DNA of 64,000 nucleotides from the NCBI GenBank assembly GCA_001443365.1, contig LDXL01000001.1, positions 62,001 to 126,000 on the forward strand, given 5' to 3'. A program made the position numbers and the translations under genes. Below are positions 43,748 to 44,958 of this stretch, one piece after another. Below the pieces are notes generated by a model. That model searched no databases, had not been told where the DNA came from, and was given only the letters and a program-made list of their open reading frames with translations. Source of the stretch: Thaumarchaeota archaeon CSP1-1. GTDB taxonomy: Archaea; Thermoproteota; Nitrososphaeria; Nitrososphaerales; Nitrosopumilaceae. The stretch's first letter is position 1. Each line of letters begins with the position of its first letter.

Positions 43748-43885
43748 ATGGCAAATATGAAATGTGTATCCTGTGGAATTGGATTCTTTTCTCCTACTGG
43801 TTCTGACAAATGTTCTAGATGTGCAGCAAAAGAACCACAATCTGAAGGAAGTCATGATTCCTGTGGTTGTGGACATAGCCACTAA
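43748..43885 (+). CDS. 45-aa zinc-ribbon miniprotein
   Basis: ATG 43748 to TAA 43883. It reads MANMKCVSCGIGFFSP, then KCSRCAAKEP and the tail SCGCGHSH. Cys6/Cys9 and Cys22/Cys25 form a C4 zinc site; the CGCGHSH end could bind another metal such as nickel or copper. A TATA box at the proper distance supports expression. Confidence 0.65.
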   Translation: MANMKCVSCGIGFFSPTGSDKCSRCAAKEPQSEGSHDSCGCGHSH

Positions 43886-43934
43886 TTCTTTTTTTCTTTC
43901 ACTATACAAAAATCATAATTCAAATTTTGCATGT

Positions 43935-44246
43935 TTAGAAATCCTTTGGAATATGATTATTTTGTTTTAGCCAATCTACTTGTGGCAAAGTAAATCTCCA
44001 TAAAATATCTCCTCTTTCAGCTTGTTTGAAATCCCACGGAGCAATTATTACAATATCATTATCACGAATCCAAATTTTGCGTTTTAGTTTTCCTCTAATT
44101 CTACCTCTTCGAGTAATGCCATCAGAACATTTTACAATGAGGTTTTCACCTCCAAGCATTTTTAGTACTCTGCCAAAAAGTTCACCTTGTTCAGGTAAAC
44201 GAATTGTTTTTAATTCGCTTTCACTTTTGACTTGACGTTTTCCCAC
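43935..44246 (-). CDS. eif1a: Translation initiation factor aIF1A
   Basis: 103 aa from GTG 44246; the ATG 4 nt upstream is out of frame. The OB fold includes GELFGRVLKMLGGENLIVKCSDGITRRGRIRGKLKRKIWI (about 20-59). Basic N-terminus and a hydrophilic end. It binds the A site of the small subunit in initiation. TATA-like ATTATATA (minus strand, 44268-44275) is about 25 nt before the GTG, so the transcript is leaderless. Confidence 0.94.
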   Translation of the reverse strand: MGKRQVKSESELKTIRLPEQGELFGRVLKMLGGENLIVKCSDGITRRGRIRGKLKRKIWIRDNDIVIIAPWDFKQAERGDILWRFTLPQVDWLKQNNHIPKDF

Positions 44247-44352: not shown

Positions 44353-44460
44353 TTATTTTGGGTGTTCTCTCATATAGTAATCATCAACACATTCTTTACA
44401 ACAAAATTCACTACTAAATAATTCAAATTCCTTCCCACAGTTTTTACATTTTAAATTCAT
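44353..44460 (-). CDS. 35-aa zinc-knuckle miniprotein
   Basis: The ATG is complementary to 44458-44460 and the TAA to 44353-44355. It reads MNLKCKNCGKEFELF, then EFCCKECVDDYYMREHPK. Cys5/Cys8 and Cys21/Cys24 (CCKEC) give a TRASH/zinc-ribbon-like site. It follows the basic miniprotein by 30 nt on the same strand, so the pair is likely co-transcribed. Confidence 0.6.
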   Translation of the reverse strand: MNLKCKNCGKEFELFSSEFCCKECVDDYYMREHPK

Positions 44461-44490
44461 AGTTACTAATCTTAAAAAAAAGAATTGATT

Positions 44491-44601
44491 CTAACGTTTT
44501 CTACTTCTACTTTTAGAACCTTTCTTTGCTGCTGCATTTCGTTTTCTAGTACGAGCAGCTTTTTTTGCTGCAGCGCTACGCTGAGCTTTTGTCTGTGCCA
44601 T
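44491..44601 (-). CDS. 36-aa Lys/Arg/Ala-rich basic protein
   Basis: The ATG is complementary to 44599-44601 and the TAG to 44491-44493. It reads MAQTKAQRSAAAKKAARTR, then KRNAAAKKG and SKSRSRKR. Over 40 per cent is Lys/Arg, and the AAAKK repeats resemble histone H1-like or small ribosome-associated tails. It probably binds DNA or rRNA. A TATA box inside a palindrome lies 22-38 nt upstream and a longer palindrome further up, suggesting tight control. Confidence 0.6.
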   Translation of the reverse strand: MAQTKAQRSAAAKKAARTRKRNAAAKKGSKSRSRKR

Positions 44602-44622
44602 CTTACAATATAGAACTTATCC

Positions 44623-44639
44623 CTAGTCTTATAGACTAG
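44623..44639 (-). promoter_or_regulatory. Palindrome enclosing the TATA box of the basic protein
   Basis: CTAGTCT-TAT-AGACTAG: perfect 7-nt arms with the TATA-like core at the centre, about 29 nt before the ATG at 44601. A repressor bound here would block TBP. Confidence 0.5.
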
Positions 44640-44663
44640 AAGTGTACATTTTTTACGTCATTA

Positions 44664-44699
44664 TACCATTTACAGAAGTTCAAACTTCATGAAATGGTA
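44664..44699. promoter_or_regulatory. 36-bp near-perfect palindrome
   Basis: TACCATTT, ACA, GAAGTT-CA-AACTTC, ATG, AAATGGTA: outer 8-nt arms and inner 6-nt arms pair perfectly, separated by symmetric 3-nt interruptions. It lies 63-98 nt upstream of the basic miniprotein and about 160 nt from tRNA-Ser. It could be an operator for a dimeric regulator, a terminator-like hairpin or the relic of a small mobile element. Confidence 0.6.
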
Positions 44700-44835: not shown

Positions 44836-44859
44836 TAAGGGCTCAACGGTAACGTAAGG

Positions 44860-44958
44860 CGCCGGGAGAGAGATTTGAACTCTCGAACCCTTGCGAGTAC
44901 GCGCTCTATGGTATAGTTATTTCCAGGCGCGCGCCCTACCAGGCTAGGCGACCCCGGC
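44860..44958 (-). tRNA. tRNA-Ser (GGA) with 15-nt intron
   Basis: Acceptor arms GCCGGGG and TCCCGGC pair (last pair G-T) with discriminator G. D arm GCCT/GGGC, anticodon stem CGCGC/GCGCG, T arm GAGAG-TTCAAAT-CTCTC, and a long variable arm ACTC-GCAA-GGGT fit class II tRNA-Ser. The anticodon loop is 22 nt; removing 15 nt (44906-44920, minus strand ATAACTATACCATAG) after position 37 leaves CTGGAAA with anticodon GGA. Position 37/38 is the canonical archaeal intron site. Confidence 0.93.

What the first reader, a model, noticed from the sequence alone, without database searches (positions are those of the whole stretch)
44491..44699. Basic 36-aa protein under two palindromes
The TATA box of this Lys/Arg/Ala-rich miniprotein sits at the centre of CTAGTCT-TAT-AGACTAG, and a 36-bp near-perfect palindrome lies 63-98 nt upstream. 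Such a design points to tight repression of a DNA- or RNA-binding peptide.
Basis: partly seen in the sequence, partly recalled or inferred. Interest (0 to 1): 0.6.

Follow-up and report, generated by a model that had tools for sequence, protein, structure and literature searches.

The report
Tiny basic archaeal gene; palindromes unconserved
The 36-residue, strongly positively charged protein is a real member of an unnamed protein family found only in ammonia-oxidizing archaea of the Nitrosopumilaceae, but the two palindromes that drew attention to it are not shared by its relatives, which instead share a different promoter motif.

Summary
In detail: a 36-aa ORF (44491-44601, minus; 8 Lys, 7 Arg, 10 Ala, no acidic residue) lies downstream of a perfect 7-3-7 palindrome on its TATA box (44623-44639) and a 36-bp imperfect inverted repeat (44664-44699; 14 of 17 pairs, so not near-perfect).

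The gene is real. Its core (invariant TRKRNA) is under purifying selection and belongs to an unnamed family found in 113 of 400 genomes of the order, all in one family, 1-5 copies per genome. Most members carry a long histone-H1-like Lys/Arg/Ala tail; this one lacks it. In four genera a copy is followed by a ~35-aa Cys4 zinc microprotein.

Neither palindrome is kept in relatives, neither recurs convincingly in the genome, and such palindromes are common in this window. What is conserved is ACGTAAAAAnTGTACAC upstream of TATAAGA, with the TATA box 31 nt from ATG in 13 of 17 promoters.

Best reading: a tail-less member of a lineage-specific, H1-tail-like nucleic-acid-binding family, expressed from a conserved promoter. 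Function is inferred from composition. In passing I found an abundant dispersed 22-bp repeat near some relatives.

The parts
44491..44601 (-). 36-aa basic protein gene, tail-less member of the TRKRNA family (pI about 12, 15 Lys/Arg, no Asp/Glu)
44626..44634 (-). TATA box TCTATAAGA; centre 31 nt from ATG, a distance kept in 13 of 17 relatives' promoters
44642..44658 (-). Conserved upstream element ACGTAAAAAATGTACAC
44623..44639 (.). 17-bp palindrome (7-3-7) over the TATA box; not conserved
44664..44699 (.). 36-bp imperfect inverted repeat; single copy, not conserved
44474..44481 (-). U-tract between the two genes, a likely terminator or attenuator; a T-tract is kept in G001, G005, G026 and G280
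   Evidence: function inferred
44353..44460 (-). 35-aa Cys4 (CxxC...CCxxC) zinc microprotein gene, downstream neighbour also in g1, g3, g20 and g12

Best explanation
44491-44601 is a short, tail-less member of a Nitrosopumilaceae-specific family of Lys/Arg/Ala-rich proteins with the core (S/T)KAxRSAAAKKAARTRKRNA. Most members continue into a low-complexity, H1-tail-like basic tail. The protein most likely forms a positively charged helix that binds DNA or RNA with little sequence specificity, as a nucleoid or RNP accessory factor. It is transcribed with a very short leader from an archaeal TATA promoter that carries a conserved upstream element (ACGTAAAAAnTGTACAC), probably a site for an activator or a TFB variant. 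The downstream zinc microprotein gene is its usual neighbour in this subgroup. The two palindromes are lineage-specific sequence, not the family's operators. Shown: family, conservation, promoter conservation, palindrome non-conservation. Inferred: nucleic-acid binding, use of the element, short leader.
For: Family and invariant TRKRNA core; dN/dS 0-0.21 between the window core and six relatives; composition pI 12, no acidic residue; AF2 helix 5-35, pLDDT 88.6, single sequence; conserved element and fixed TATA-ATG distance, element exact only at this locus in 12 genomes; gene pair in four genera; palindromes absent in relatives and not repeated in the genome.
Against: No binding data and no profile or structural relative of known function. 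The family is patchy even within Nitrosopumilaceae (113 of 400 genomes of the order), so it is not essential. A single-sequence helix prediction for an Ala/Lys/Arg peptide is weak evidence. G001, in the same genus, has the gene pair behind a different promoter, so the element is not universal.
Confidence: 0.55

Rival explanations
1. One reading: both palindromes are operators for dimeric repressors that tightly repress the gene in this lineage (a newly gained control).
For: Both palindromes lie within 100 bp of one start codon, one on the TATA box; a repeat as good as the larger one is rare in shuffles of this promoter alone (0.3%).
Against: Neither is kept in 16 relatives; neither is repeated elsewhere in the genome; similar palindromes are frequent in the window.
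Confidence: 0.12
2. The peptide is a ribosome- or RNA-associated small protein (in the manner of eL41 or bTHX) rather than a chromatin factor.
For: Size and charge resemble tiny ribosomal proteins (general knowledge); in this genome it sits beside aIF1A, tRNA-Ser and TruB genes.
Against: Length varies from 34 to about 140 aa, several paralogs per genome, patchy distribution; no match to any PDB chain, ribosomal proteins included; the pair is not beside aIF1A in the other genomes checked.
Confidence: 0.18
3. The basic family binds polyphosphate or another polyanion and organises granules, as AlgP does in Pseudomonas.
For: AlgP has an H1-like Lys/Pro/Ala tail and localises to polyP granules (PMC9239181); the long family members have similar tails.
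Against: The window protein lacks the tail; no sequence relation to AlgP was shown; no data on polyP in this lineage were examined.
Confidence: 0.08
4. The 36-bp repeat is a diverged copy of the dispersed repeat ACATTTGATACGAACTGT found beside relatives, i.e. a recombination or mobile site.
For: Similar distance upstream; that repeat lies upstream of several homologs in other genomes.
Against: Local alignment to the repeat is no better than shuffles (P = 0.13); the genome has no copy of the repeat at up to 3 mismatches and the 36-bp repeat is single copy.
Confidence: 0.03

Closest known systems
Histone H1-like bacterial proteins (AlgP, chlamydial Hc2) and the eukaryotic H1 C-terminal tail
   Same: Lys/Ala-rich, low-complexity basic tails of variable repeat number; small size (PMC9239181, PMC2848022 for AlgP and Hc2; here)
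   Different: No Pfam match to any of them; an invariant TRKRNA N-terminal core; the window member has no tail at all
Candidate archaeal nucleoid proteins defined by size and charge (e.g. the 74-aa Lys-rich protein of M. luminyensis, PMC7613761)
   Same: Small, basic, lineage-specific
   Different: No abundance or nucleoid-fraction data for this family; no sequence relation tested
Tiny basic ribosomal proteins (eL41, bTHX)
   Same: Very short and very basic (from general knowledge)
   Different: Variable length and copy number, patchy distribution, no PDB sequence match
MYM/FCS-type and other small treble-clef zinc fingers (for the neighbour protein)
   Same: CxxC...FCCxxC pattern; sub-threshold zf-FCS hit (E 0.071)
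   Different: Below the Pfam cut-off; no convincing fold match (best E 1.5)

Membership tests
TRKRNA family (unnamed, defined here) | N-terminal core with invariant TRKRNA, in Nitrosopumilaceae | tested here: met
TRKRNA family (unnamed, defined here) | Long Lys/Arg/Ala-rich tail after the core (present in most members) | tested here: not met
   Window member ends 10 residues after the core; the 34-37 aa subgroup shares this. A feature of most members, not a requirement.
Histone H1 / Hc1 / Hc2 families | Match to the Pfam or NCBIfam models | tested here: not met
   No hit for the window protein or three long or mid-length members
Nucleoid-associated protein (functional class) | Binds DNA non-specifically and is abundant in the nucleoid | not testable with these tools
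   Needs biochemistry and proteomics; composition is only compatible
Ribosomal protein | Sequence match to a solved ribosomal chain | tested here: not met
   Profile search of all PDB chains, E up to 10: none
Palindromic-operator repression | Operator conserved upstream of orthologs or repeated across a regulon | tested here: not met
Archaeal TATA promoter | TATA box at a fixed distance from the start, conserved between relatives | tested here: met
   31 nt to ATG in 13 of 17, 32-33 in four

The most novel reading that the evidence does not exclude
The TRKRNA family is an undescribed class of archaeal linker-histone-like chromatin proteins that forms a notable part of the nucleoid in some Nitrosopumilaceae, where histone is scarce (below 0.06% of the N. 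maritimus proteome, PMC7613761), with short tail-less forms like this one acting as competitors or caps.
Probability: 0.2. Interest if true: 0.65.

Novelty: new variant of a known kind. Interest (0 to 1): 0.33.

Why it matters
Nitrosopumilaceae are abundant marine archaea, and N. maritimus has very little histone (PMC7613761). A lineage-specific, multi-copy, H1-tail-like family without any Pfam or NCBIfam model is a testable candidate for part of their nucleoid proteins. The conserved promoter classes (GTAAAAA...TGTACAC here; TGTGACTT-TACCATATAA for many long paralogs) give concrete sites for transcription-factor work.

Tried and rejected
Operator or regulon model: no conservation and no convincing further copies. 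36-bp repeat as a mobile unit: single copy, no real similarity to the dispersed repeat (P = 0.13). Intrinsic-terminator reading of the 36-bp repeat: no T-run on either side by inspection. Viral origin: none of 179 pattern matches in the viral contigs encodes a relative. Known family: no Pfam, NCBIfam or PDB hit. Fold match for the zinc microprotein: best E 1.5. Bacterial hits (Solirubrobacteraceae, Shapirobacteria) are probably low-complexity lookalikes and were not pursued. Literature searches found no description of this family in the papers held; most subscription papers are not held.

Full report
What is there. The window lies in a Nitrosopumilaceae genome (named relatives are Nitrosopumilus, Nitrosarchaeum and Marine Group I records; that G047 is N. 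maritimus SCM1 is my inference from its 1,645,259-bp length). On the minus strand the order is TruB/Cbf5, a 147-aa hypothetical, an intron-containing tRNA-Ser(GGA) at 44858-44958, the 36-aa gene, a 35-aa zinc microprotein gene and aIF1A.

Chance. In 64 kb, perfect 7-3-7 palindromes number 17 against 8.5 +/- 3.1 in shuffles (pooled spacers 0-8: 77 against 74), and 36-mers with at least 14 of 18 pairs number 4 against 0.8 +/- 0.9. The 36-bp repeat is single-copy in the genome. Variants of the TATA palindrome at up to 3 mismatches are no commoner than the reversed control pattern (12+20 against 27+26).

The gene is real. A protein search of 81 related genomes and a DNA search of 250 genomes of the family found orthologs and paralogs. 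Over the 20-codon core, the window sequence against six relatives gives dN/dS 0-0.21; some other pairs have too few synonymous changes to be informative. A profile search of 400 genomes of the order found members in 113, all in family f1, 10 genera, usually 1-2 and up to 5 per genome. The family is not universal: many near-complete relatives have none.

The family. Twenty aligned members share an N-terminal core with invariant K14, T18-A23 (TRKRNA) and K26. Most continue with a low-complexity tail rich in Lys, Arg, Ala, Pro, Ser or Thr, up to about 130 aa in all, often in short repeats. The window protein belongs to a 34-37 aa subgroup ending in KKGSK plus a basic cluster. Its own-genome paralog on contig 8 has 55 aa. 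No Pfam, NCBIfam or PDB relative exists. AF2 on the single sequence gives one helix, residues 5-35, pLDDT 88.6; a lone-helix prediction for an Ala/Lys/Arg-rich peptide is weak evidence of structure in the cell.

The partner. A 32-36 aa CxxC...CCxxC protein follows the gene in genomes of g1, g3, g20 and g12, with a conserved T-tract between the two where the pair is close. In the other genomes examined aIF1A was not found beside the pair, so the pair, not the wider neighbourhood, is the conserved unit.

The promoter. Ten aligned promoters of this subgroup share (A/G)CGTAAAAAnTGTACAC or a close variant, about 10 nt of pyrimidine-rich spacer, and CTATAAGA. The centre of TATA is 31 nt from ATG in 13 of 17 promoters and 32-33 in the other four. 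Mean information is 1.16 bits per column over the element and 0.52 over the region of the 36-bp repeat (an ungapped alignment of related sequences, so a relative measure only). The outer four pairs of the TATA palindrome average 1.3 of 4 in 16 relatives; the best inverted repeat in their upstream 110 bp is 9-12 of 17 pairs, the level of shuffled sequence (10.9). In 12 genomes the element is exact only at the window locus; its one-mismatch copies in G160 and G280 lie at orthologous promoters. Within the genus, G001 carries the same gene pair (84% identical DNA) behind a different promoter, so promoters have been exchanged.

Interpretation. The most economical reading is a non-specific nucleic-acid-binding peptide, the tail-less form of an H1-tail-like family, expressed from a conserved TATA promoter with its own upstream element. 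The background that N. maritimus histone is below 0.06% of the proteome comes from PMC7613761. Binding, partner and regulator are inferred. The palindromes may still matter in this one lineage, which I cannot exclude, but no evidence here supports them as operators.

Noticed in passing
G005, G026, G041, G183, G012 (e.g. L064, L151, L028, L006); absent from the window's genome: A dispersed 22-bp repeat, (TTA)ACATTTGATACGAACTGT(T/A)AAC, with 127, 109, 96, 85 and 33 copies (up to 3 mismatches) against none for the reversed control pattern. Copies often stand in runs of one orientation a few hundred bp apart between unrelated small ORFs, and lie just upstream of several basic-family genes. It has short inverted ends (TTAACA...TGTTAA) and looks like a recombination or cassette-type site; nature unknown.
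   Followed up: partly
window 43930-44246 and G000:C4:29704-30012 (L100): The aIF1A gene is present twice with 317 bp of 100% identity and unrelated flanks; the contig-4 copy sits beside translation genes (aIF2-beta-like, Rio1-like kinase, KH protein). Recent duplication, gene conversion or an assembly artefact.
   Followed up: partly
window 44858-44958 (-): tRNA-Ser(GGA) with a 15-nt anticodon-loop intron, missed by the default ARAGORN run.
   Followed up: yes
L015, L018, L019-L023, L026, L032, L144 and others: Long paralogs share another conserved promoter, TGTGACTT(T/G)TACCATATAA, across genera; two further promoter classes occur in other members.
   Followed up: partly
window 43748-43885 (+): A 45-aa Cys-rich ORF (MANMKCVSCGIGFFSPTGSDKCSRCAAKEP...CGCGHSH), another likely metal-binding microprotein nearby.
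   Followed up: no
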